NCBI RefSeq assembly: GCF_001625195.1
Contig: NC_054390.1
Coordinates: 806,001-870,000 of the forward strand
Reading direction: 5' to 3'
Source: Drechmeria coniospora
Taxonomy: Eukaryota > Ascomycota > Sordariomycetes > Hypocreales > Ophiocordycipitaceae
DNA length: 64,000 nucleotides
Part shown: piece after piece, positions 23,332 through 40,158 of the stretch
Numbering within the stretch: position 1 is the first letter of the stretch
Layout of the letters: each line of letters begins with the position of its first letter
The notes under the pieces: model-generated
The model's input: the letters and a program-made list of their open reading frames with translations, nothing else
Database searches by the model: none
Told to the model about the DNA's origin: nothing
Made by a program: the position numbers and the translations under genes

Positions 23332-26300
23332 GATGCTGCGTGTCGTGACGCGGAGGCACGTCTAGATATGGCAGGCGGCCGGGCGGTCAGGGAACGCATC
23401 CGTTTCGGGTATCGGCAGTATTTGTGCTCGCGCAAGCCTCGGTGCGAGTGTGCGTGCGAGTGCGATGACGGGGGCGGCGATGACGTGCTGTCCTGTCTCG
23501 CTCGTCGTCGGGTGCGAGAAATGAAAGGATATTACTCCGTACGGCAGAAGGGGATGGATGGATGATGACTGTCGTGGTGGTGCGGCCTCAAACACTCGCA
23601 GCGGGACCGACGAGGTTTGGCCTCTGGCGGGGCGGACGGCACTGGAATCCCCGCCAATTGCCGTACAGTAGCCTCCTCGTTAGCAGCCAGTGCGTGGCCA
23701 TGTACTCGGTACGACGCCAGATCCTGGAACAGGGTAATTTCGCAAGCGCATAGTTGCCTTGGTAGGCTAGGTTCGAGAAACTAGCGCCAGGATGAGCAAG
23801 TACCCGGCGAGGTATACGTACAATGTTTGCCGAGTGAATTCACGCCGGTGGCAGGTACCCAGTACAACTTGCCGCCAGCTCCTCCGTGTACTCCAGCTCT
23901 CACGCTACTGGGGAATTATTGTCAGTGAATGCTCTTTTCTTGTACTCTGTACTTGTGCACGGTGACGGTACATACCTACAGTACTTACTTACAGTACAGT
24001 ATGGAGCGTGTGAACATTGCCACCTCTCCCCAGCTCGCTTCCATCTCCTGGACAGCAACGAGGGAGGCACATGGAGTCAACATCATGTACATGCGCATGC
24101 GTATTCCTGCTCTTGGGTCCATATTGGTGTCTGGCAGTGAAGGGAAAGCCGCTGGCGATTTGTGCATGCCTCCGAGTGCCTGTGATGAAGCCGTAGCGCG
24201 CGTACCTGACATTGCCTGACATTCAACATGCGGCGTTCGCTGCGGCACGAATGCGGCGACCCGGTCGCTGGCCATGACAGGACAGGCAGGCCCTGAACGA
24301 TGGCGTGCCAGCAGCCGGCCGTCCCTTGTCCGACGCTGGGATCAATCATTGCTGGGGGCCAATGCCCGGCGACTAGCATTTCCGCTTGGGTGCTTTGGGG
24401 CTAAAATGGCGTTATCGCATCGTCGAATTTTGTGCCGCGAGCTCGTCATCGATCCCTGCGAGGTACGCACTAGGAACGCTGGACCCTGTCAAAATACCCC
24501 TTACCCAGCACTGGTGCGCAGCAGCAGGTCGGTGTGAGTAAGTACAGTACTCCGTGCAGTACATGTAATTTCTCCGTACACTTGTCACTAAGCATACCCA
24601 CTGCACGCAGCGGATAGGTGCTTAAGTAATTACTGTACAAGTACGGAGTACCGAGCAAAGTACTGTACAGTATGGAGTACTTACAGTACATGTACTCCGT
24701 AGCACAGTAAGTACTTAAGTAGTTGTATCATTACTTCCCAAGGGTACGTACTTACGTCGCAGCCGCCCGAGTCAATGTCCGTCAGCAATTCCTTAGTCAG
24801 GTCCGTTTTCTGGAAGCGTCTTGTTCACCATGGCACCGTCTGGGCGTACTTGTAGGCATCAAACTGATCTTGCACATCCTCACGGAACCGAATGTTGCCG
24901 ACCCGGTGCTGCCCTCCTGAGTAATGCTTACATTTTCAAACGTAGCTTCTGGCACTTGGCTCACGATGGACGAATCGCATGAGCATTTCTGAGCAGCGTT
25001 GTTGAGTCTTGTTATGGGGTATTGTACAGTACGTACTTACTTAGGCACGAAGTACATGTACAAGTTTGTGCGTGCACGGAGTACTTGCTGAACAAGCAAG
25101 GTGAACTCGCCCGGAGTACTTACAGTACAACTACGGTACTTACTTACAGTACAACGCAGGGAATGTTTGGAGCAGTATCACGTGAGGGTCCTTCACACCA
25201 ACAAGGCGTACCAGACCAGGACGCTGACTCAGCAAGTGGTAGGGTATATAGGTAAAAATAAAAGGCCAAACATTGCCTTCGGGCATATGGTCTTTTGAAA
25301 CGATACAGAGAAGATGTAAGCTGAAGCTCGCGCGTTCGAACCCGGTCACAGTCACTAATACCCGCACAGTAGCATGGCCCCTGCACTAAGGATGACACGC
25401 AAATCAAAGAGAAGCAAACTATTTTTTTGCCCTTTTTGACGTCTTGATTTTTTTTTGGCCTCTCGGATGACGAGCTTGTCTCTCGTTCGTAGCAGGTGAC
25501 GACGAGCTGACGCATCTGCGCTTGCAGCGTACATCGTTTTACTGCACAGGTGACGACGAGCTGACGCATCTGCTCTTGCAACGTACATCGTTTTACTGCA
25601 CAGCTTCCTCTTGCATTTTCCATTTGCCACGCGTGGTCCGCCCCTCTCTCACACCGGCGATTGCTTTGGCGAGCCCGTCCCATCATCGTCAGTTTTTCTG
25701 GGAGCGACTCGTCTTGCTCCGACCTCTGGGGATGCGTTCTCATCAAGAACATGTCGTGATACGCCAACTCAATCATGACAATGGGCGCCGTGAGCTGCGT
25801 TGAGTGTCGCCCGCCCACCTACGCATACACCGTCACGAGGTAGTGCTTCCCTGCGAGGGTTCTCCCACCCCACGGCCTGACAGGAGGGAATCGGAACAGG
25901 CTGCATTTCAGGCCTTCATACACCGTCACGAGGTGGTACTTCCCTGCGACGAGTGTTCTCCCACCCCACGCGTGGCCTCACAGGAGGGAATCGGAACAGG
26001 CTGCATTTCAGGCCTTCATACACCGTCACGAGGTAGTACTTCCCTGCGACGAGTGTTCTCCCACCCCACGCGTGGCCTCACAGGAGGGAATCGGAACAGG
26101 CTGCATTTCAGGCCTTCATACACCGTCACGAGGTAGTACTTCCCTGCGACGAGTGTTCTCCCACCCCACGCGTGGCCTCACAGGAGGGAATCGGAACAGG
26201 CTGCATTTCAGGCCTTCATACACCGTCACGAGGTAGTGCTTCCCTGCCAGTGTTCTCCCACCCCACGGCCTGACAGGAGGAATCGGAACAGGCTGCATTT

Positions 26301-26815: not shown

Positions 26816-27803
26816 ATGCATCACCAAAGGGAGGGGAGCGCGTTGTTGCACGCAGAATATTGCAGCACGGAGGAAAAGGAAAATGGACATTGTCAAGATG
26901 GTACGTCGAGACGACGACGCCATTGGATGCTGGGTGCCTCCGTCGCCCTCAACGTCCTCCTGCTCTCGGTCCTTGGCTTGGGTCTCTGGACCGTGTCCCG
27001 CACAAAATGCCCGGCGGCGGCGGATGCACGACACGACCAAAAGGCGCTCAACGGCGACCTCAAGAAAACGTCATCCTACTGTAAGCAGCAAGGACGACGC
27101 AAAGTAGGACCGCTCGGGCCGCTAACACGACGCAGCGCCCCTGCTGGATCTCGTCAACCTCGAACCGCACGCCGTCCGGTTCAACGGGCGACTTCACGAC
27201 AACACGTCCATCTATCGGCTCGACCCCTCTCCCGAGGTCGACAAGGCGTGGGATGACATCTCGGCCGAGGGATTCGAAGTCATCACCGTCGACGAGGCCG
27301 CCGTTTTGCAATCAGGCAAGTCGCCTCGGCTCAGCGTCAAGGCACCGGAGAGCTGGGGCCTCGGCGACGGCGCGTACCTCGCCCAGGTCGACGTCTTTCA
27401 CCAGATTCACTGCCTGAACGAGCTCCGCAAGGAGATTCACTTCGACTACTACTACGGCGGCGACGGCAGGCTGAACGGCACGTCGCGGCCGGCGGATCAC
27501 CTGCATCACAAGAAGCACTGCATCCACATGCTGCTGCAGAACCTCATGTGCCACGCCGACGTCGACATCATCACCCACAACTGGGTGCACTACGAGCACA
27601 TCAACCAGCCGAACCGACCGTACGCGGAGCCGTTTGCCGACTTTAACCTGGTGAAGCAGTGCCGGAATTTCGACGCACTGCTCGAATGGACGCGGAAGAA
27701 TGCGCTGGACAAGCTCGCGGAACGTTGGCATGGGTTGGAAAAGCCAGAGGGCACCGAAATCGTCCAGGGCGATGGTTACTTCTGGCAGGGTGTGAAGCCA
27801 TGA
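26816..27803 (+). CDS. UstYa-family (DUF3328) oxidase A of the RiPP cluster
   Basis: UstYa-type proteins are membrane-anchored, probably copper-dependent enzymes that oxidatively cyclise fungal RiPP cores. The model is join(26816..27080, 27136..27803), 310 residues. The splice GTAAGC to CGCAG, with branch GCTAAC, joins TSSY to SPLLDLVNLEPHAVRF, matching the family's post-membrane YSP motif. A basic RRRRH stretch precedes one membrane span at about residues 37-60 (MLGASVALNVLLLSVLGLGL). Both signature motifs are present: HQIHC at 177-181 and HKKHC at 213-217, then MCHADVDIITHNWV. The C-terminus is DGYFWQGVKP. The start codon is chosen as the last ATG before the basic anchor and is uncertain. 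It is the first of three such genes here. Confidence 0.88.
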
Positions 27804-28556
27804 ATGACGAGGCACTCGCGAGCCCATGTCATTGCTTTTCATGCCGCACGGAAAACACGGTTTCTTGACACGTCCCAGATGCTGACGGCCGGTTACCTGG
27901 GCGGCCCGATGTGCGATGCCTGCGGCCAACTGGGACAGCCTGTGGCCCGATGGCTGTCTCGGGAAAAATTGTAGTACTGAAGTCGGTTCACGTTCCATGG
28001 TATTGCAAGATGCTCTACTCTACTGTGTCTACGTACAGTATGAATTACTTGCATCATCCCGTGCTGTAGTGCAGTGCTCAGCGCGCGGTCTACAGTATTC
28101 CACCACTATTGGCACGTTGCTGTAATACTCCGTAGGCCAGCCGCCATCACTTGGCCTCTGGTGCTTAGCCACGTGACGCCGAGCTGCTTTGAACCCCCCC
28201 CCCCAGTTGGAAATAATGAACATGTTCCGACTCGCCACATCGCTGCGTCGACTCGAAGCAAATCTTACAAACTCGTCGACGATCGTGCATTTGATGTCGA
28301 GTCCGATTTGAATGGATGGTACCTCGTAAAGGGGCATGCGAATGGCAGAAGCGTGCCACCGACAGCGCCGCTTGCTCGACTCGCTCGACGACTTCGCCAG
28401 CCGGGACGAGGCGGCCTTCGCGAGGACTCGACGGGCGAGTTTGACGAGACTGACAATTATTCGATCAACCCTTCCTCCCGTTTTCAAACGAGATCGGGTG
28501 CCATATTGTTTCCATCATCATCCGCCGACGACGTTTAAATGATCATCAAGTGAAGA
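27804..28556. other. Intergenic between UstYa-A and the F-box gene
   Basis: No gene recognised. A run of ten C lies near 28195, with TACTCCGTA words just upstream. Short open frames on both strands show no domain. Confidence 0.45.
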
Positions 28557-29627
28557 ATGGATGATGACCTTCCGCCTCCGAGTTATCGCTCCGCTACCGA
28601 ATACCCTATCCAAGAGGAGCAGACGAGCGCCATAATTCGAACGGCCTCGTACCATCGTGAGGATTTCTGCCGCTCCGTCATATGGTTCTCACCCCGCGAG
28701 CACGTCGGCATTCGCTCGTCCATGGCAGAGTCATTCCAGCGCACCGCCGAAGCAGGGCTCGGTTCCCTCAATCGGCTGCCGCTGGAGCTCTTGCACGACG
28801 TCTTGCTACGGCTGGACACGCAATCTCTATTCAATTTTCGACAAACGAATCTCCGATCGAGGCAAGTGCTCCATTCTATGAAGCAATATCGGATCGTCAT
28901 CTCTCACGGGCTCAACCTTCTCTGCGCCTTGCTGCGGACACGACTTGCCGTCACTGTCTCACTCTTTGACTTTTACTACGCACTTTGCACAAAACTTTGC
29001 ACCACCTGCGGCGAATTCGGCGGATTCATGTCACTGTTGGCCTGGAACCGATGCTGTTTTGTATGCCTTCAAAATGCTCCAGAGTGCCAAGTGAAAACTC
29101 TTGCATCGGTGCGGAAGCAATTCAACATGACCAAGGCCGAAGCAGTCCGGTTGGAGTCTTTCAAAACCCTGCCTGGAATATATTCGATGGAGGAGTCCGC
29201 CTACAGATCCCGCGTCACCGTCGTATCGGCTCATCAGGCCGCCATCTCGTCTCGCCAACAGCGACTGCATGCATCGGCGCAAGTGCCGCCGGCTAACGGC
29301 GGACGAAATCAAAAATTGAACTTTATGGCCTCATGCGCGCTTCCCTACTACGATGGACGGACAGGCAAGGTAGAGCACGGAATATCGTGTGCCGGCTGTC
29401 AACTGGCTTTCGAAAAAGGCATCACTCATTCCCGGGGTGAGCGATGGGCGGTCATGGCTCGCGACAAGGTGTACGCACGAGATGACTACCTCGGCCATTT
29501 TCGGTGGTGTGAACAGGCGCAACTCCTGTGGAGAACCAGCGCCGATGGGAAGCGTGAGCCCCCCGAGCTTCCCGAGCTGGCTCGGCGAGGGGGCTATTTC
29601 TCCATGATCGGAGAATGCTGTCATTGA
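28557..29627 (+). CDS. F-box protein with cysteine-rich motif
   Basis: A 356-residue single-exon frame. Residues 6-10 are PPPSY, a PPxY motif of the kind bound by WW-domain ubiquitin ligases of the Rsp5 family. An F-box lies at about 69-110 (LNRLPLELLHDVLLRLDTQSLFNFRQTN). It is followed by CTTCGEFGGFMSLLAWNRCCFVCL (a CxxC then CCxxC pattern common in fungal F-box proteins), then helical sequence and a second group near the C-terminus (ISCAGCQLAFEKG, HFRWCEQAQLLW). It is likely a substrate receptor of an SCF ligase with unknown target. Such genes are numerous in these fungi, so a role in the neighbouring RiPP pathway is not implied by position alone. An alternative start at 28722 would remove the PPxY motif. 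Confidence 0.72.
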   Translation: MDDDLPPPSYRSATEYPIQEEQTSAIIRTASYHREDFCRSVIWFSPREHVGIRSSMAESFQRTAEAGLGSLNRLPLELLHDVLLRLDTQSLFNFRQTNLRSRQVLHSMKQYRIVISHGLNLLCALLRTRLAVTVSLFDFYYALCTKLCTTCGEFGGFMSLLAWNRCCFVCLQNAPECQVKTLASVRKQFNMTKAEAVRLESFKTLPGIYSMEESAYRSRVTVVSAHQAAISSRQQRLHASAQVPPANGGRNQKLNFMASCALPYYDGRTGKVEHGISCAGCQLAFEKGITHSRGERWAVMARDKVYARDDYLGHFRWCEQAQLLWRTSADGKREPPELPELARRGGYFSMIGECCH

Positions 29628-30016
29628 CGCGAGTTCGAGCCAAGACCTTTCGCCCATGCATCCACCCCGCACGCTCGGAGAGTTGTTAGTTGTTGCATGG
29701 AACGAAAAGAGCGATTCAATCAACAATTATGCACTTGGGCGTCTACATAATGTACAACTAACGAGTGCATTGTTACTTCACAGCCTGAGCCGCGATTTTC
29801 CCGGCTAACCGCTCATCTATTTTCGTGAGGGGTTCGTTGGTTGGCTGGTTTCCTACACATGCATGACAGTATCGAGCGGGAAAACAGTGCAGGGAAAGGG
29901 CCAACCAACGAGGAATGGTGACGAGTGAGCAGATATGCTTATAAGAAAGCGACATTTCTCTCAGATCCATCCCTCGTCTTCCCACGCACTTGCTCACCTT
30001 CTTTCTACAACAAACC
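29628..30016. other. Intergenic, no features recognised
   Basis: Spacer between the F-box and kinase-like genes; moderately AT-rich with no repeats of note. Confidence 0.45.
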
Positions 30017-30847
30017 ATGATAAAGCATGATACCACGGACTCGGCGATGCAGCCAACCATCCTGTCCATGGAAGTGGATGATGACGATTCTTACCAAAGC
30101 GAATATCGAGTGCGAATCGGCAACCAGGTAAAATATCTCGTCGTTGCTCCCGGAACCTTTGACAGGGACACCCTTTCGTTACCCCTCGGATCCTTGCCCC
30201 GGTTGCCTTGCGACGAGGAATGGACCGTGGCCTACATCTCTCGTGACAAAACCAGCGGTGGTTTGAAAACGTCCCTGACGAACCATACGTTGGCCGGCGT
30301 CGAGAATCAGTGGCACCACACCACGGTAGATTGCTTCGAGTTGGAAAGAACCAAGCAGATCACAGGAGCGGCATTCGAAGCCATCTGCCATTCCGTCGTT
30401 CCGGTCAACTTCTCATCGGCAACCCCCATCATTGTCAAGATGGCCCGGTTTGAATGGGAGGTGCCACGCATCGAACAAGAAACGAGAGCATATCAGCTGC
30501 TGGAAGGCTCCGGGTTGGCTCCACGCTTCCTCGCTCATGTGCACGAGAATGGACGCGTCATCGGCTTCCTGTTGGAGAAATTGGAAGGAAGATTTGCTTC
30601 GCTGCACGATCTGGACAACTGCAAAGCAGCGCTGGGGAAACTGCACCGTCTAGGGCTTCTGCATGGAGACGTAAACAGGTATAACTTTCTCGTGACGGAC
30701 GACGGGGTGAAACTCGTCGATTTTGAAAACTCTCAGGAGGACCCTGACCCAGAGTTGATGAGGAATGAATTGAAGAGTTTGCCTGCCAAGTTGGTGGATG
30801 AGTCGGGACTTGGCGGCGGCTTCATTTTCACAGGCGATGATGTATAA
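30017..30847 (+). CDS. Protein-kinase-like (KLD/APH-type) protein
   Basis: A 276-residue single-exon protein of a kinase-like family common in fungi (often mislabelled as alpha-galactosidase A precursor). The N-terminal 130 residues have no recognised domain. The kinase-like half shows IIVKMA with Lys141 as the likely ATP-binding lysine, IEQETRAY with Glu154 as its partner, HGDVNRYNFLV with a catalytic Asp218 and Asn223, and LVDFE in place of DFG/DFD (Asp235). The protein ends soon after, so the C-lobe is short. It could be a small-molecule or protein kinase or a pseudokinase. It lies within the UstYa gene group, about 285 bp from the 3' end of UstYa-B, with which it is convergent. The start could also be 29990 or 30047. 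Confidence 0.72.
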   Translation: MIKHDTTDSAMQPTILSMEVDDDDSYQSEYRVRIGNQVKYLVVAPGTFDRDTLSLPLGSLPRLPCDEEWTVAYISRDKTSGGLKTSLTNHTLAGVENQWHHTTVDCFELERTKQITGAAFEAICHSVVPVNFSSATPIIVKMARFEWEVPRIEQETRAYQLLEGSGLAPRFLAHVHENGRVIGFLLEKLEGRFASLHDLDNCKAALGKLHRLGLLHGDVNRYNFLVTDDGVKLVDFENSQEDPDPELMRNELKSLPAKLVDESGLGGGFIFTGDDV

Positions 30848-31131
30848 GTGAGCATCAAGGGTCGATACGGGTCATCATTGAGATGGCTATATGATATTCA
30901 AGTTTGTCTGGGAAGCGTCCAGCAGCAGGTAGTTTCGGAAGCCGGCGTGAAACTGGATTCGCGTTGGTGTTTTACAAAGTTGACTGACAATAGTTTGACA
31001 ATAGTTTCACAATCTCGACAAATCTTTGTTGACAATTCTTCCATTCTATAGCCAAGGCGACGTCTCGATGAGAAGACTCTGGTATTTTATTTGCGAAAAA
31101 GGGAGACATGTACGAATACAAAATGAACGTC

Positions 31132-32063
31132 CTACGCATCCAAATCATCCGGCACGTACGTCTTTCTGTCAAAGTGAACCACTTCTCTTTCTTTCGCCCA
31201 CGTCTTGATGGCGTCAAAATCCCGGCATGTATGGGCAACCTGAGCCACCTCCTTGGATTCCTGTGCGGCTTCTACCCATTGCCACGGAAGGGGGGTGATG
31301 TCGGCCGAACACATCAGGCTTTGCCGAAGAGCGTCGTAGCAATGCTCCAGATGCTCGATCCCCATGAGCTCGTGGTCGGGCGCATAGTCTTGCTTGCTGT
31401 AGAGTCGCTTCCGAAGCATATTCTACAACCAGCATTAGCCAAATTCTCGTCTTGTGAAGGGGCAAGGAAGACACGGACGAGGCAATGCAGTTGATGAAAT
31501 ATGTTCAGTTCAACGACGTAACTGCCCTTGCTCCCCGGGAGAGGAACCGTTTTATTAACAAGTTTAGCGGCCGACTCGCGCGGTATACGACTGATGCCAA
31601 CTTGATACACGATCAGTGACAGTCCAGATTGGAGCGTCGGGATAGCCTACAGGAATACAGGTCATCCCAGAGAGCATCACGCTCCGGCGTCGGTGGCCCC
31701 TGGTACGCAGTTCGCTCGGAACCGAAGCCGCTGGTAAAGACGACGTTCTTGTGCCTGATAACATCCATAGCAGGCGCTGCGTAGTGTAAGCAAGGGGAAG
31801 GGAATGCCATGAAACATTTCCATCAACTTACAGTACACCTGTCCTGGGAATATTGGTGTCGAGTATTGAAGACGCACGACCAGTGCAAAGCAAATCACGA
31901 CGAGGACGACGATGACGACGCCGAATGCGACGATAGCTCGCTTGAGCCTGGCGATTTTTCTTTCATCAACCTGCTCGATGACCCTTTCTCCCGATTCATC
32001 GGATAGGAACGGTCTGTCAACACTGGAGCGACCGTCAACGGCGGAAGCGGAAAAGTAGCCCAT
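31132..32063 (-). CDS. UstYa-family (DUF3328) oxidase B of the RiPP cluster
   Basis: The model is complement(join(31132..31422, 31479..31600, 31651..31776, 31832..32063)), 256 residues, and all introns are 49-56 nt. After a polar N-terminus with an acidic and basic stretch, one membrane span lies at about 42-66 ([21 protein letters not shown]). The first splice (GTAAGT to CGCAG) creates VYSPAMDVI, the second joins LYSF to [13 protein letters not shown], and the third (branch GCTAAT) joins HQLHCL to [13 protein letters not shown]. These are the family's usual intron sites. The signature motifs are HQLHC at 155-159 and HLEHC at 184-188, then [13 protein letters not shown]. The [15 protein letters not shown] block is typical. 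The gene is divergent from UstYa-C, sharing an 805-bp upstream region. Confidence 0.9.
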
Positions 32064-32868
32064 CGTCGCCAATTTCTTAATGTTGAGCCGTGAGAAAATC
32101 TGGTCGACAAACAATGGAATTTTGGAAGAGTCAGTCGCAAGGAGAAGAGGTTTGCACTTGAAGTTTTGGGCACTGGTCAGTCGCAAGGAGAGGAGTTTTG
32201 CACTTGAAGTTTTGGGCACTGGCAAGGCACAAAGTGATGGATTGAGCCCCTTGCCGAAACATGGGAATCGTTATCGCCAAAGCCGCGATACTACATGCTA
32301 TCCAGTAGATAAAAATATCATTAGAGCTTTAGGATACATCACCGAGCCGGTACGAGGGGCCCGAAGACGAGACCATCTGAAGAGCAATAATTGCTGTAGC
32401 TATATGCTATAGATGGAAATTTCGGACGGTAGTATCCCGTATTTTCGGCTTACTTGCGGATGCAGGGGGGCTTTGGATATGGCTTGGAATTCGAGTATAG
32501 TTGTAATTACAGTTGTACATGATCCATGCTCCGGATTCCCGACCCCGTTCCCCGGACCCCATACTCGCAGGATGGAGGATTTGCATGTCAGAAAGTGCTG
32601 ACGATGCGGAACCGCCTCTTTATTCGGACATGACCCGCACGGATTGGAAATAATAGCAGTGGCTATACGGAGTACTGATTAAATAATGGGGCAGGTCATA
32701 TCAACGACCAAGGCTCAGTGAAGATGATCAGATTAGAACTCGGAACAGTGCCCAGGACTCGGGTTTATTTGTCGGCTGCATTCAATTCTCTGCAGCCCAT
32801 TCTTGAAGAACCCGAGACTCTTGCAATCTTGTGCTTCCTATCTTTGCTGGCTCCATTTTGATTCCAAC
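32064..32868. promoter_or_regulatory. Shared divergent upstream region of UstYa-B and UstYa-C
   Basis: An 805-bp interval between two divergently read UstYa genes is the natural place for co-regulation of the pair. It contains a direct tandem duplication of 46 bp (32131-32176 and 32177-32222; shared words TTTGCACTTGAAG and TTTTGGGCACTGG) close to UstYa-B. A regulatory role is inferred from position; no known factor site is claimed. Confidence 0.45.
32131..32222 (+). repeat. 46-bp tandem duplication upstream of UstYa-B
   Basis: Two adjacent copies starting TCAGTCGCAAGGAGA, differing at a few positions. They lie 68-159 bp upstream of the UstYa-B start codon, probably in its 5' leader or core promoter. 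Confidence 0.85.
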
Positions 32869-33898
32869 ATGGCCGCCAAGTACACCAAGATTCACGAGGT
32901 CGGGGATCACTGCGCGAGCCCTTGCAGCAGTTGCGCAACATTGTCCAACGACAGATGCTCGGATTTAGAAGATGTTTCGATGAAGCTGGAAGGACAGATA
33001 CTGGATGACCGCCATAGCTGGAGACGAAAGAGCCTTCGAACGGGCTTGCAGGCGATTGTATTGATCGTCCTATCCGTTGCTTCCTTTTTCGCCGGACGTT
33101 CACTTCATCGTGTCGACGAAAACGCATGCCTCGACACAGCATGGGGTAACAACTCTTCTTCTTGACCGACCGAGTGATTTATACTAAAAATGGTGGCTAG
33201 ATGAGGTACGGAAGGACGTGCGATTCAAACGAACAGAGTTCAACCCTCGGTTTGTGGGACCCAAGTCGCCATACATGGGGCCTCCTACGCCGGCCAAGGA
33301 CAAGCTCTGGTACGACCTCGCGGCACGTACGTTCTCCATCTCCAACAGTCGCTTGCACTTGTCTGCTCCCCGTCTTCGCCACTGACACTCGCTGGGAATT
33401 CAGTACGAAACTTTGGTGTCGACAAGCCAACTCTGCAGGCTATGAATCGGAGCAAAGGCGCAGTAGAGTTTCCCGGCCTCGGCGGCCGATTTCAGGTGGG
33501 AATGGAGGCCTTTCACCAGCTGCATTGTCTGGTGAGTGCACATGACAGGAATCTCATGCTATCGGGCATCGAACGGCTGACCAGTTCAGAACTACGTTCG
33601 AATGTATACCTACCAAGACCATTACGGCACCGTCGACTACGACATGATTGCTGAAGGGCCAAAGGAGCGGCAGGAGCACAAGGATCACTGCGTTGAGGTC
33701 CTCCGACAGCGATTGATGTGCAATCCAGACCTCAACGTTTACTCCTACCACTGGACGCAGAAAAACAAGGTGCCGTTTGGAAACCTCTACACGAGCCACC
33801 AGTGCGTCGACTGGGATCGATTCTACGCATGGGCTGAGAAAAATGCCGTTTCTTCGCCCCCCCTGACGAAACCAGAAGGCGCCGAAGTTTGGTCATAG
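32869..33898 (+). CDS. UstYa-family (DUF3328) oxidase C of the RiPP cluster
   Basis: The model is join(32869..33145, 33201..33326, 33404..33531, 33590..33898), 279 residues. The N-terminus is cysteine-rich (CASPCSSC) and precedes a membrane span at about 56-80 (LQAIVLIVLSVASFFAGRSL). Splices join AW to DEVRKDVRF, LAA to LRNFGVDKP and HQLHCL to NYVRMYTYQDHYG; the last of these sites corresponds to the third intron of UstYa-B. The HxxHC motifs are HQLHC at 172-176 and HKDHC at 207-211, followed by RLMCNPDLNVYSYHW. The GPPTPAKDKLWYDL block matches UstYa-B, so B and C look like diverged paralogues. The product is expected to act in the secretory pathway on the cluster's precursor. Confidence 0.9.
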
Positions 33899-35900
33899 TT
33901 GATTCTACACATGTACAGCGGCCGTGTATAAGAGAGACGGCAGTGAGGGATGTTAGGCCATGGTTTCTATTTTGCAATATATCCCTAGAGACATTTACAT
34001 GTCCATGATAATTAGAAGTGGAACAATTACAGAATTAACATGTGTTTTATGATAATCAAGCCTGGACATGATGTACTAGCGGACCGCCCCCTAGCCGGTG
34101 GTGATGCTCACTTGTGGAGTCTGTAAAAGCATAGCACCTCTGAAGCTTCAACCAACGTATCGTCGCATAAGATGCCTCATCAACCACGTTTTGTCGAGAC
34201 CTCTTCCACATGGTGCATAGGAAAAATACTAACAAGGTACGATTATGCTAGAGATGGCGCAATGGAGAAGACTCCACACTGGAAAGGGGTTGTTACCAAA
34301 TTTGGCGAGGAAACGCCCTCGCAATCCTTCACATCTCGGCCACATCGCTTGGCACAAACAGTCTGACCACTCCTCCCAGGCTATCGGCTCTCGCAGGGTA
34401 CAAGGAATCACCGGAAGTGGGCCGAGCTTATCGGGGTCCAGATGTTCCAGATGTTCCATGGGTAGGTACACCCACAATACGACTTGGATATGCACACAGG
34501 AGTGAGTCCCTTACCTTGACCTCCAGCCAGGGGTCATCTCATTTTCTCGCCATTAGCGCTATTTGAGAGCACATAGGCAAGAAAACGGAAATTATCCAAT
34601 TCAGCCGTGGGCTATCACACGCAGTTTGAGATATTCGATCCGACCTGTTCAAGACTAAGATAAGAGGACAAGGGGTGGCGTAGAACAGAGCGAGATGTTT
34701 CTGGTACGCATGCTGACGCAACAATTCAGGTGACATGCGTCAAGGTCAGGAATGAAGAGGATTCCTACCTGGCTGAACTTGCCCTGCCCATGCTAAATTT
34801 ATACTCGCGCATGATGAGCTTTCGGGTCATCATGAATGAGCGAAAAATCAAATACACTCCACACAGACATGTAGGTAGCATTGATATCTCACTATTCGGG
34901 CGGGGGTACAAAGGATCAAGTGACGGACGAAATACTCGTGTATTAAATTCCGAGACAAAAAGAAACATTTTCAGGCGGCAGACCGCCGGCGTCGCGGGCC
35001 GACATCCGGCACATTTCGAACCGCGACCGCGGCTACGGTACCGAGTGGATATTGGAGTTGCATCGGGCGCCTATGGGACCCGCCAGATGAGCAATGCGTT
35101 GGCGTAGCATTGCTTATTTCATCGTGGACGAGTAATACTTGTAAGTGCACTCTAGATGTGTAGAGTTAAGCAAGCTAACAACGGCATCTGTATGTGGACT
35201 CATCCATTTAATATATTCCAGCCAGGGTTTTGTTCAACGTCTAGCCAGAGACACGACACATGCCCTCGAAATTAAAGAATTGTTTTCCTATAGGAATCAT
35301 AGCTACCAGCTAGATGTGCCAAATCAGCAGTAACATATGTTGGGGCGATACCGTGGAGCTGTGAATAAGAATTGGATAATACTGAGCCTTGATACTCTAA
35401 GGACCATACGATGTGCACTCTAACATGCTGCGAGATGGCCAAAGAAATATTCAGCGATGTTTTACTTGGAGTAGTTGCCGATGTGGATTGTTATATCTGA
35501 TGATAAACAACCAACTCATCTAGATGAATTATGTTGGCCTCGTAGTATTTATGTTGATCGTCCAACCCTATGGAAATGATGAGCCAGCGATGCATGACGC
35601 AATCAATTGCCAAACTGACATAGTATTCCCTTCTGATGCAATTTTATCCATCTCGATGAAATATTGAACAAAGCAGCCTTCTATTTCTGTACCAGAAAAT
35701 AGGAGACTATCCATCGTCAAAGCCTTAGGCGATTGACCTGAGCCTTGACACACCTCTCTCACTGGAGCCCCCAAGAGTGCTGATAGCTTAAATCTGTTGT
35801 TCCCAGTGCTGCATATTGGGCCTTGACGACATCCTCCTCAACCACTAGTGTAGAGCAACCACTAACCCGCGACATCGACATCGTTCTGCGCAGGCTCATG
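33899..35900. other. 2 kb gap between UstYa-C and the precursor gene
   Basis: No complete gene recognised. On the minus strand at about 34229-34495 a frame with HLEHLDPDKLGPLPVIP and CLCQAMWPRCEGLRGRF has natural-looking composition but no identified domain or partner exons. AT-rich sequence dominates 34500-35750. Confidence 0.45.
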
Positions 35901-36702
35901 CTAGACGTAGAGCCAGCCGCTTCGAGTAGCGGCCACATCAACATGGTTCTCCTTCGCCTCGACATGTGCCTCATCACGCTTGGAATAGATCCATCCGCTT
36001 CGGGTGGCCGCAACATCAACGTGATTCTCGTTCGTCTCCGCAGGAGCAGCATCACGCTTGACATAGAGCCAGCCACTTCGTGTAGCCGCCACATCAACGT
36101 GGTTCTCCTTGCTGGCCTGCATAATCTGTCAGTATGGATTGGCCATTTAGGATAGATCTCAGTGGTCGGAACGCACATCAGACTTTGACTCGGCAGGAAT
36201 CGACTCTTCCGTGGAGTCACGCTTGACGTAGAGCCAACCGCTGCGAGTCGCGGCCACATCAACATGGTTCTCGTTGGCCTCGACTGGTACAGCTTCGTCA
36301 CGCTTGACATAGAGCCAGCCGCTTCGAGTTGCAGCTACGTCAACATGGTTCTCGGCCGCTTCGGCCGCCACGTCAACGTGGTTCTCCTTGCTGGCCTAGG
36401 GGTTCGGTCAGCGTCCATGCAGTCATTTTGAGCAGTTGATGGTTGCAACAACGTACGTTGGCCTCAGCAGGAGCGGATCCTTCTGTAGAGTCACGCTTGG
36501 AATAGATCCAGCCGCTTCGGGTAGCCGCTACATCGACGTGGTTCTCCTTGCTGGCCTTTATACCAAGTTAGCGGCGGGCTTAAGCTTTGGGATGGTCACG
36601 GTTGCAACGCACATCAAGGCCTGCTTCGGCTGGTGCAGGAACGGGCGAGGCCATGACGGCAGCGACCATGGCCGTCGCAGCAATTGAGGAGAGGAACTTC
36701 AT
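35901..36702 (-). CDS. Secreted multi-repeat RiPP precursor (dikaritin-type)
   Basis: The model is complement(join(35901..36116, 36177..36395, 36457..36555, 36613..36702)), 207 residues. Residues 1-19 (MKFLSSIAATAMVAAVMAS) are a signal peptide. The rest is repeats built as ENHVDVAATR, then a core, then KRD, then a variable acidic spacer. Six cores are present: SGWIYS (exon 2), SGWLYV twice (exon 3), then SGWLYV, SGWIYS and SGWLYV (exon 4). The first five are followed by Lys-Arg, a Kex2 site; the last is followed directly by the stop. Exons 2, 3 and 4 each start with ASKENHVDV and every intron is phase 0 and about 60 nt. This is the layout of ustiloxin, phomopsin and asperipin precursors: signal peptide, repeated core before KR, UstYa genes nearby. 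The core itself is unfamiliar. Tyr and Trp are the likely cross-linked residues (inference). Exon 3 also holds one repeat without a core. Confidence 0.9.
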
Positions 36703-38764: not shown

Positions 38765-40158
38765 ATGAACGTTAACCAGGAAGGGTTTGACCGTCGATTG
38801 GTTGTTGTGAAGCAGATCCTGCAGTGCTTTAATTTGAAGGTGCGATGCAGAACCCAACTTTTGCCCGTGCCTACTGCTAAGTCAAAACACCAATAGTCCA
38901 CACAAGTCACACCCCTTGCCTATGCTGAACGTTGCCCCTTTCCTTACAACAACTTCTCCTTCAAGGTGGACCTGGCTTGTCCAGCCACGTGCGCATCTTT
39001 TCCTGGAAGACAGCCGGGGACCTCGGTCCTTCCCCCGGAAGGCGTATCGACGCTCGTTGTCCGCCTTAGCAACCCCCTCGCCGAGGGTCTGAACAACATC
39101 AACCGCGTGCAAAATGAAGTAGCGTCTCTGCATCTCGCGCGCCAGTCTTTCGAGGCCTCTGGGCTTCCTCCTGTGGTCCCTGCTGTCTATGCCTGGGCTG
39201 GCCCTACTTTTCCTGACGTGGCCGGCGAGGAGGGATTCGGTTGGCTAGTCGGCGAGTTCAAGCCAGGCGCCGACTTGGACACCCAGTTTCCTGCCCTCTC
39301 CATGGGGGAGAAGGAAGCCGTCCTTTGGCAGATAGCGGAAATTGTTTCCGCGTTGCAGCGAGTGGCACTTCCTCAGTCCGTCACCGAATTCGGCGCCCTC
39401 ACCTTTGACGAGAATGGCCAGTTGGTGAGTGGGCAAATGCCGCTTCTGAAGGGGGGGCCGTGGAGTTCGTACGATCAAGTCTGGACCAAGAAGCTTCTGT
39501 CCCAGCTGGAAGATGCAGACAAGAGTTCTCTGCTTCAGGGTTGGAACGGACGAGATGTGAGGAAGCAAATCAATGATTTCCTAACTGCTGGAGGCGTGAC
39601 CAGAGTCCTCCATGAAGTGGACACAACCCAGCGGGTTTTGATTCACGGAGATCTGAGTACGTCGGGATAAATCTAGCCTCCGTCAGAGCATGCTAACGAC
39701 GGTTAGCGATGAACAACATGCTATTCGACAACACCACCAAGCGCATCACCGCTCTCCTTGATTTTGACTGGGCATGTGTTTCACATCCTTGCGACGAATA
39801 TCTGTCCGGCCTTTGGGACATTGGGGGCGGAATCCATGATGAAGTGCAGAAGTTTCAGTCCAGCATCATCACTGGGGACTACTCTAGCCCCCCCAGTGAC
39901 CTCAGCGACGAGGAATTAGAGGAATGGAAAGTATCTAGAGCTTGGAACTCTGCCATCTCCAAGGCGAGAGCAACAAGGCCAAGCACAATCGCAGGCGTCA
40001 AGGGCATCCAGGCGCTTCAAGAACTCGGAAACCTACTCTGTCCATTCTCGCTAGGAAACGAGGTCATGTTGAAGAGAATGCCTGATGAGGAAAAGAGCAA
40101 GAAGAAGGAGGATACTGAAAATCAGATCCTGGAATGGCTCCTGAAGCACAGCGCATAA
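38765..40158 (+). CDS. APH-family phosphotransferase
   Basis: A 428-residue aminoglycoside-phosphotransferase-fold protein of the large fungal APH family; the substrate is unknown. The model is join(38765..38839, 38897..39656, 39707..40158). The first intron (GTGCGA to CCAATAG) joins FNLK to STQVTPLAYAERCPFPYNNFSFKVDL, the conserved N-lobe entry. The second (GTACGT to GGTTAG, branch GCTAAC) reconstitutes HGDLTMNNML. Visible motifs are the VVRLSNP strand, the helix glutamate in VQNEVASLHLAR, the catalytic HGD with Asp277 and Asn282, and LLDFDWA with the Mg-binding Asp297. It ends with a charged helical tail (EEKSKKKEDTENQILEWL). It lies 2 kb beyond the RiPP precursor; a link to the cluster is possible but not shown. 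Confidence 0.85.

What the first reader, a model, noticed from the sequence alone, without database searches (positions are those of the whole stretch)
26816..36702. Apparently new UstYa-type RiPP gene cluster
Three UstYa/DUF3328 genes (27, 31 and 33 kb), each with a membrane anchor and two HxxHC motifs, lie within 10 kb of a signal-peptide protein made of near-identical repeats whose cores abut Lys-Arg sites. Seen in the sequence: the motifs, repeats and splice structure. Known: ustiloxin, phomopsin, asperipin and epichloecyclin systems pair exactly such precursors with UstYa oxidases. Inferred: the cluster makes a cyclic peptide from the SGWLYV/SGWIYS cores. I do not recognise this core from known systems.
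Basis: partly seen in the sequence, partly recalled or inferred. Interest (0 to 1): 0.95.

Follow-up and report, generated by a model that had tools for sequence, protein, structure and literature searches.

The report
Fungal Trp-Tyr cyclic peptide cluster
A nematode-killing fungus carries a small gene cluster in which a secreted protein made of repeats is probably cut into short Trp/Tyr peptides and oxidised by three copper enzymes; a related fungus has the same precursor, so this looks like a new, testable family of an already known kind of fungal peptide.

Summary
The window is from Drechmeria coniospora (Ya1 is identical to RJ55_07454 over 273 aa). Three genes match Pfam UstYa at 162-190 bits (cut-off 25), each with one hydrophobic segment and two HxxHC motifs. 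About 2 kb from Ya3, on the minus strand, lies a four-exon, 207-aa repeat protein with six cores (SGWLYV x4, SGWIYS x2); five are followed by Lys-Arg, the sixth by the stop codon. New here: the homologous precursor exists in Paramyrothecium foliicola, fused in its gene model to a Ya3 homologue, with seven repeats of xNxVDAAATRAGWLYx. Ya1 and Ya3 homologues appear to share a contig in five other genomes or contigs. So this is a conserved UstYa-type (dikaritin-like) RiPP family whose core I did not find in the papers searched. Two corrections: Lys-Arg is not conserved as the cut site (P. foliicola has KER or RER after 5 of 7 cores), and ENxVDxAATR before the core is as conserved as the core. Cyclisation, transcription and product are untested. 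Verdict: real; new member of a known kind.

The parts
26816..27803 (+). Ya1: UstYa/DUF3328 oxidase, 310 aa, exons 26816-27080 and 27136-27803; HQIHC and HKKHC
   Evidence: Splice model; Pfam PF11807 190 bits; identical to RJ55_07454 of D. coniospora over 273 aa; motifs and hydrophobic segment
31132..32063 (-). Ya2: UstYa/DUF3328 oxidase, 256 aa, exons 32063-31832, 31776-31651, 31600-31479, 31422-31132; HQLHC and HLEHC
   Evidence: Pfam PF11807 187 bits; splice model placed by hand and checked for frame (a first choice of the second intron, broke the frame)
32869..33898 (+). Ya3: UstYa/DUF3328 oxidase, 279 aa, exons 32869-33145, 33201-33326, 33404-33531, 33590-33898; HQLHC and HKDHC
   Evidence: Pfam PF11807 162 bits; splice model chosen among four in-frame ones; 99% identical to RJ55_07457 over its 162 aa
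35901..36702 (-). Precursor, 207 aa, exons 36702-36613 (signal-like N-terminus), 36555-36457, 36395-36177, 36116-35901; six cores SGW(L/I)Y(V/S)
   Evidence: Splice model and translation, repeats and codon changes, hydrophobic N-terminus, homologous to the C-terminal part of P0118
36457..36555 (-). Exon 2: first core SGWIYS then KRD
36177..36395 (-). Exon 3: a repeat that has lost its core (ENHVDVAAEAA), then two SGWLYV cores each followed by KRD
35901..36116 (-). Exon 4: SGWLYV-KRD, SGWIYS-KRD, and SGWLYV ending at the stop codon
35862..35900 (-). Frame behind the precursor's stop reads HEPAQNDVDVAG then stop: looks like a worn-down further repeat
   Evidence: interpretation by eye
28554..29624 (+). 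F-box ORF inside the cluster; role in the pathway not shown
   Evidence: Pfam F-box 27.2 bits, cut-off 20.5
29945..30844 (+). APH/kinase-like ORF inside the cluster; role in the pathway not shown
   Evidence: Pfam APH 31 bits, cut-off 23.2

Best explanation
This is a compact ribosomal-peptide (RiPP) cluster of the UstYa/dikaritin type in Drechmeria coniospora. The precursor is made with a signal peptide and enters the secretory pathway (inferred from its hydrophobic N-terminus). In the Golgi its repeats are cut after the Arg that follows each core, by the kexin encoded elsewhere in the genome (inferred), and basic residues are trimmed by a carboxypeptidase (inferred). Three membrane-anchored UstYa proteins, binuclear copper enzymes by analogy with CctR, oxidise the W-(L/I)-Y part of each core, most likely joining the Tyr or Trp side chain to a carbon of a neighbouring residue and perhaps desaturating one (inferred). 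The conserved ENxVDxAATR stretch before each core is either the recognition sequence for these enzymes or part of a longer product; cutting after its Arg would free SGWLYV and SGWIYS. Shown: gene structures, family membership of the three enzymes, intact copper motifs, repeats, conservation of the whole block in a second fungus, and probable linkage of Ya1 and Ya3 homologues elsewhere. Inferred: secretion, cleavage, oxidation, ring and function.
For: UstYa matches and motifs. In an alignment of P0002 (Ya1) with 45 of its 108 other hits the His, His and Cys of both HxxHC motifs are invariant, as are two further Cys, C190 and C227. Precursor structure and repeats. P. foliicola P0118 = Ya3 homologue fused to a precursor with seven repeats; BLASTP to our precursor 149 bits, E 2e-47 for the single comparison. 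In 13 repeats from both fungi 10 of 16 block positions are invariant (N, V, D, A, A, T, R, G, W, Y). Ya1 and Ya3 homologues carry the same species name and the same longest-contig length in Xylariales sp. AK1849 (locus tags 617379/617373), Penicilliopsis zonata (17,174 bp), P. foliicola and Rhypophila sp. PSN 637, and the same source and contig length (1,578 bp) for P0090/P0117: 5 of the 12 Ya3 hits outside D. coniospora. Three of the five UstYa regions of this genome have a repeat precursor beside them (this one). One kexin-type P-domain match in the genome. DUF3328 as binuclear copper oxidases: PMC12435403 (parts 1 and 2 of 3 read). DUF3328 proteins needed for cyclising ustiloxin, asperipin-2a and phomopsin cores: PMC7329392 (section 7) and, for ustiloxin and asperipin, PMC6514808 (passages).
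Against: No transcript, proteome or metabolite data were available. No tyrosinase, S41 peptidase or P450 match lies in the window in whole-genome searches (only the best candidates are scored there), so a ustiloxin-like set is not seen. No signal-peptide predictor was on hand. Lys-Arg is not conserved in P. foliicola (5 of 7 sites are KER or RER), which weakens the simple Kex2 model. The precursor gave no homologue in the protein search (one non-significant hit, E 3.0, with only the 7994 best candidates scored); P0118 at 456 aa lies outside that search's length limit. An F-box ORF and a kinase-like ORF stand between Ya1 and Ya2, so Ya1 could be a neighbour and not part of the pathway, although its pairing with Ya3 elsewhere argues otherwise. 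Same longest-contig length is an indirect sign of linkage, and 7 of 12 Ya3 hits show no such partner. In two of the five UstYa regions of the genome no clear repeat precursor was seen, so UstYa genes need not imply one.
Confidence: 0.83

Rival explanations
1. The repeat protein is a secreted Kex2-processed repeat protein whose linear peptides act as signals (pheromone- or hormone-like), and the UstYa genes nearby serve another product.
For: Most Kex2-processed repeat proteins, 6120 of 7878, have no DUF3328 neighbour, and yeast alpha-factor is linear (PMC7329392, abstract and section 7). DUF3328 enzymes also act on non-ribosomal peptides such as cyclochlorotine (PMC12435403).
Against: A precursor homologue is fused to a Ya3 homologue in the P. 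foliicola gene model, so the two genes are neighbours there too. No NRPS family showed among the 27 window ORFs scanned (27 of the 158 ORFs of 130 aa or more counted). The precursor lacks the WCxxxGxPCW pheromone pattern (recalled motif; the genome search with it found 0 matches, so the fungus's own pheromone gene was not located).
Confidence: 0.1
2. The product is not the hexapeptide but the longer Kex2 fragment (about 26-27 aa where no intron lies between, D...ENHVDVAATRSGWLYV), modified near its C-terminus.
For: ENxVDxAATR is as conserved as the core between the two fungi. No kexin, S41 or S10 peptidase match lies in the window to remove it. The last repeat stops right after the core, so the C-terminus is the fixed end.
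Against: For ustiloxin it is thought that Kex2 releases 13-14-residue pieces whose flanks are removed by proteases still unknown (PMC6514808, passages), so a conserved flank need not be product. An Arg stands directly before the core in all 13 repeats.
Confidence: 0.25
3. The precursor or a UstYa gene is a decaying remnant that makes nothing in this strain.
For: One repeat has lost its core, the last ends in a stop with a worn repeat behind it, and the protein search returned no deposited D. coniospora precursor.
Against: All four open frames are intact with consistent splice sites, the six core blocks vary almost only synonymously, and Ya1 and Ya3 are 100% and 99% identical in a deposited D. 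coniospora assembly with another contig length.
Confidence: 0.06

Closest known systems
Unnamed precursor plus Ya3 homologue of Paramyrothecium foliicola (P0118)
   Different: Seven repeats with constant 28-residue spacing; cores AGWLY(I/A/T/V); cut sites KER (4), RER (1), KKR (2) in place of KR; deposited as one fused protein named 'Cyclochlorotine biosynthesis protein O'
Asperipin-2a (aprA/aprY)
   Same: Hexapeptide core, small cluster, UstYa homolog as oxidase, four genes with no tyrosinase among them (PMC6514808 passages)
   Different: Core FYYTGY; one UstYa gene, a transporter and a reductase; here three UstYa genes, nearest transporter match at 61 kb among the 27 ORFs scanned, core with Trp
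Ustiloxin B and phomopsins (classical dikaritins)
   Same: Signal peptide, repeated cores, Kex2-type sites, UstYa enzymes
   Different: YAIG-type cores (ustiloxin), a tyrosinase also required, S41 peptidases in the clusters (PMC7329392 section 7, PMC6514808 passages); no tyrosinase or S41 match in this window
Epichloecyclins (gigA)
   Same: Secreted repeat precursor with imperfect 27-residue repeats and a DUF3328 neighbour (PMC7317419 passages); here spacings 44, 27, 35, 26, 26
   Different: The four-gene gig cluster holds its own kexin gene and one DUF3328 gene; here the only kexin-type match is 3.4 Mb away and there are three UstYa genes
CctR of the cyclochlorotine cluster
   Same: DUF3328 binuclear copper enzyme with HxxHC(x)nHxxHC and one transmembrane helix (PMC12435403)
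   Different: Hydroxylates a non-ribosomal peptide

Membership tests
UstYa/DUF3328 oxidase family (PF11807) | Score over the curated cut-off of 25 bits | tested here: met
   190, 187, 162 bits
UstYa/DUF3328 oxidase family (PF11807) | Two HxxHC motifs and one N-terminal membrane helix | tested here: met
   helix judged by hydrophobicity, and by a helix at residues 3-26 in the predicted model of P0002
UstYa/DUF3328 oxidase family (PF11807) | Copper-dependent oxidation | not testable with these tools
   by analogy with CctR only (PMC12435403); no significant solved relative by sequence or fold
Kex2-processed repeat protein (definition of PMC7329392, section 13) | Signal peptide | tested here: inconclusive
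   hydrophobic N-terminus; no SignalP available
Kex2-processed repeat protein (definition of PMC7329392, section 13) | At least 3 tandem repeats of at least 8 aa between KR/KK/RK/RR sites, none over 100 aa | tested here: met
   six repeats, five KR sites, spacings 26-44 aa, judged by eye and not with the paper's own program. The P. foliicola homologue has dibasic sites after only 2 of 7 cores
Dikaritin | DUF3328 enzyme with two HxxHC next to a repeat precursor (definition as told in PMC12048977, passages) | tested here: met
Dikaritin | Tyrosinase and S41 peptidase of the original clusters | tested here: not met
   3 tyrosinase and 3 S41 match places in the genome, none in the window; asperipin-2a also lacks a peptidase gene (PMC12048977, passages)
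Dikaritin | Oxidatively cyclised product | not testable with these tools
   needs mass spectrometry
Epichloecyclin | kexB in the four-gene cluster | tested here: not met
   the only P-domain match is at C2:4278551
Ascomycete alpha-type pheromone | WCxxxGxPCW core (recalled) | tested here: not met
   absent from the precursor (sequence) and no exact match in the genome

The most novel reading that the evidence does not exclude
A so far undescribed, widely spread dikaritin-like family defined by the block ENxVDxAATRxGW(L/I)Yx: two or three UstYa copper oxidases build a Trp-containing cross-link (for example Trp-Tyr or Trp to the Leu/Ile carbon), guided by the ENxVDxAATR stretch repeated before every core, and the product is cut out at single Arg residues on both sides and not strictly at dibasic Kex2 sites.
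Probability: 0.3. Interest if true: 0.75.

Novelty: new member of a known kind. Interest (0 to 1): 0.58.

Why it matters
A 2022 review says that only five dikaritins had been reported from filamentous fungi, although 22% of Kex2-processed repeat protein genes sit by a UstYa gene (PMC10512285, passages). This cluster offers a compact case: one precursor, three oxidases, a Trp-Leu-Tyr core unlike the cores named in the passages I saw, and a second species whose precursor separates conserved from free positions. D. coniospora is used as a laboratory pathogen of C. elegans (PMC7500977, passages), so a deletion and its effect on infection can be tested. In the two genome papers of this fungus the passages that I saw count NRPS, PKS and DMATS genes, and the words RiPP and ustiloxin do not occur in their main texts.

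Tried and rejected
Protein search with the precursor: nothing significant. P0118 was out of its length range, and no D. coniospora entry came back, so the gene is probably not annotated, or is modelled at another length, in the deposited proteins. Solved-structure search by sequence (one hit, E 0.96) and fold search with the AlphaFold model of P0002 (mean pLDDT 79.3): no match (0 of 29 fold matches at E <= 0.001). Pheromone idea: pattern absent. Introns as copies of each other: weak, since shuffles reached the local alignment score in 3%, 1.4% and 61% of 500 for the three pairs, so I claim only shared phase and shared exon starts. Tree of Ya1, Ya2, Ya3 with their hits (125 rows): Ya1 and Ya3 fall in separate groups with their own hits; Ya2's long branch makes its place unsure. 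Pfam hits of the precursor to VasX_N, TbpB_A, SH3_9, SH3_16 and DUF7440 I take for repeat artefacts, as none has a stretch that passes on its own. Searches of papers for SGWLY, SGWIY, GWLYV, GWIYS (1 paper) and GWLY, AGWLYI, TRAGWL, AATRAGW, AATRSGW (21 papers): judged from titles, none concerns this fungal core; one is on a bacterial P450 RiPP. Supplements of the Kex2 surveys could not be read. While checking this report I found that I had overlooked a third repeat precursor beside a UstYa gene (L019); one search corrected that.
Full report
What is there. The window is G000:C2:806001-870000 of a 32.8 Mb genome in 28 contigs. Ya1 is identical over 273 aa to RJ55_07454 and Ya3 99% identical over 162 aa to RJ55_07457, both Drechmeria coniospora, a nematode-parasitic fungus of the Ophiocordycipitaceae. 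The deposited proteins lie on an 11.6 Mb contig while this contig has 10.2 Mb, so the genes are present in at least two assemblies of the species.

Enzymes. Three spliced models score 190, 187 and 162 bits against Pfam UstYa, cut-off 25. Each has one hydrophobic N-terminal segment and two HxxHC motifs. In an alignment of 46 of the 109 proteins found with Ya1 (P0002 itself included) the His, His and Cys of both motifs and two further Cys are invariant. The three enzymes are only about 29-32% identical to each other, so they are not recent copies. The work on CctR (PMC12435403, parts 1 and 2 of 3 read) shows a binuclear copper centre at this motif in a membrane-anchored dimer that uses O2; I apply that by analogy. 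A review passage says that three UstYa homologues of phomopsin are needed for cyclisation and desaturation (PMC10512285).

Precursor. On the minus strand, 36702-35901, four exons joined by three phase-0 introns give 207 aa with a hydrophobic start MKFLSSIAATAMVAAVMASPVPAPAEA. Exons 2 to 4 each begin with the same words ASKENHVDVAA, as if whole exons had been copied. Six blocks ENHVDVAATRSGW(L/I)Y(V/S) follow at spacings 44, 27, 35, 26, 26. Five are followed by KRD; behind the sixth stands the stop codon, and the frame behind it still reads HEPAQNDVDVAG, a likely worn repeat. One block in exon 3 has lost its core. Within the six blocks, 12 of 16 codon columns vary only synonymously and two vary in the amino acid (L/I and V/S); of 21 distinct nucleotide changes 3 are non-synonymous, 15.7 expected, 0 of 20,000 random draws as low.

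A second species. The Ya3 search returned 13 proteins, one of them D. coniospora's own. Another, P0118 of Paramyrothecium foliicola (Hypocreales, Stachybotryaceae), is a 456-aa gene model in which a Ya3 homologue runs into a second precursor: seven repeats xNxVDAAATRAGWLYx at a constant 28 residues. It aligns with our precursor at 149 bits. Over the 13 repeats of both fungi the positions N, V, D, A, A, T, R, G, W and Y never change, L changes only to I, and the residues before GW (S/A) and after Y (V/I/S/A/T) are free. After the core P. foliicola has KER in 4, RER in 1 and KKR in 2 of 7 repeats, against KR at 5 of 5 sites here. So the constant feature is an Arg before the core and an Arg two or three residues behind it, not a dibasic pair. 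This was found because the model is fused; the precursor search itself could not see it, as P0118 is longer than that search allows.

Linkage elsewhere. Of the 12 Ya3 hits outside D. coniospora, 5 share a source or species name and a longest-contig length with a Ya1 hit: Xylariales sp. AK1849 (locus tags 617379 and 617373), Penicilliopsis zonata (17,174 bp), P. foliicola (507,297 bp), Rhypophila sp. PSN 637 (159,683 bp) and a 1,578-bp metagenome contig (P0090/P0117); the other 7 show no such partner. I read this as a conserved Ya1-Ya3 pair; the contigs themselves could not be opened here. I did not search Ya2.

Surroundings. Whole-genome family searches, which score only the best candidates, place no tyrosinase (3 places), S41 peptidase (3), P450 (53) or S10 carboxypeptidase (22) match in the window, and the one kexin-type P-domain match is at C2:4278551. 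Of 158 ORFs of 130 aa or more I scanned 27 with Pfam: between 24 and 41 kb an F-box ORF and two APH-like kinase genes show besides the cluster; outside lie housekeeping genes (WD40/F-box protein at 20.9-22.6 kb, pseudouridine synthase at 42.3-44.3 kb, Med22 at 44.8-45.3 kb) and an MFS transporter at 61.2-62.6 kb. The cluster core is thus four genes: precursor, Ya1, Ya2, Ya3.

The rest of the genome. Of the five UstYa regions, three have a repeat precursor with a signal-like start beside them: this one; C2:6.69 Mb with GGCYNYI/SGCYTYI cores; and C3:7.266 Mb with eight QQMPYEKEFPN(V/S) units, seven of them followed by KR. In the 10-kb stretches around the other two (L017, L018) I saw none that is clear. 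Only this genome's three precursors were compared by eye; they share no core.

Mechanism. Most likely: secretion, cleavage after Arg by the genome's kexin, trimming, and oxidation of Trp-Leu/Ile-Tyr by the three UstYa enzymes. In asperipin-2a and phomopsins the bond is an ether from Tyr to a neighbouring side chain (PMC6514808 passages), while victorin is closed between Phe and Leu (PMC9233826 passages); here Trp is as constant as Tyr, so a Trp-containing bond is possible. Which residues are joined, in what order, and whether the ENxVDxAATR stretch is removed are open.

Comparison. The set is like asperipin-2a in size and in having no tyrosinase, but has three oxidases and another core. It meets the working definition of a dikaritin (DUF3328 with two HxxHC beside a repeat precursor, as told in PMC12048977, passages) but not the older one with tyrosinase and S41 peptidase. 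It differs from the epichloecyclin cluster in lacking its own kexin (PMC7317419 passages). The core was not found in the full texts searched, nor in the main texts of the two Kex2 surveys; their supplements were not readable, so a listing there cannot be excluded. The passages seen of the D. coniospora genome papers mention no such cluster.

Verdict. A real, conserved UstYa-type RiPP cluster with a core new to me: a new member of a known kind, worth a deletion and a mass spectrum.

Noticed in passing
L016:747-1157 (+), G000:C2 about 6,693,750-6,694,160, with UstYa matches at 6,685,278-6,692,164: A second repeat precursor in the same genome: repeats KRGGCYNYIKRDGVQYAVPEGCPEAAPDAKV with KR on both sides of a GGCYNYI/SGCYTYI core, a signal-like exon upstream (MQMSKILSILAVAIVSTAAAPTPD) and several UstYa matches next door. 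Probably a second UstYa RiPP cluster, with Cys and Tyr in the core.
   Followed up: partly
L019:6348-6679 (+), G000:C3 about 7,266,350-7,266,680, with UstYa matches at 7,264,190-7,264,909 (-): A third repeat precursor: eight 14-residue units QQMPYEKEFPN(V/S), seven followed by KR, behind a signal-like start (MRIETAIKFTAVAAASSVLSAPMAAPKA), about 1.4 kb from a UstYa gene; the DNA unit is 42 bp, 97% matches.
   Followed up: partly
window 35862-35900 (-): Behind the precursor's stop the frame reads HEPAQNDVDVAG and stop, a likely worn repeat.
   Followed up: partly
window 25820-26280: Five direct copies of a roughly 100-bp unit upstream of Ya1.
   Followed up: no
precursor and P0118: Pfam VasX_N (and DUF2198 in P0118) score over their cut-offs on these repeat precursors without any single stretch passing: an annotation trap.
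   Followed up: partly
P0118 (Paramyrothecium foliicola): The deposited gene model fuses a Ya3 homologue with the neighbouring precursor; similar fusions may hide other precursors. A scan of the 123 proteins held found no second one.
   Followed up: yes
G000:C2:344532-345483 and 9993739-9996079: Further UstYa genes; no clear Kex2-type repeat precursor was seen within the 10-kb stretches L017 and L018.
   Followed up: partly
window 38897-40155 (+): A second APH-like kinase gene in two neighbouring open frames beside the cluster; only the first piece is over the Pfam cut-off.
   Followed up: no
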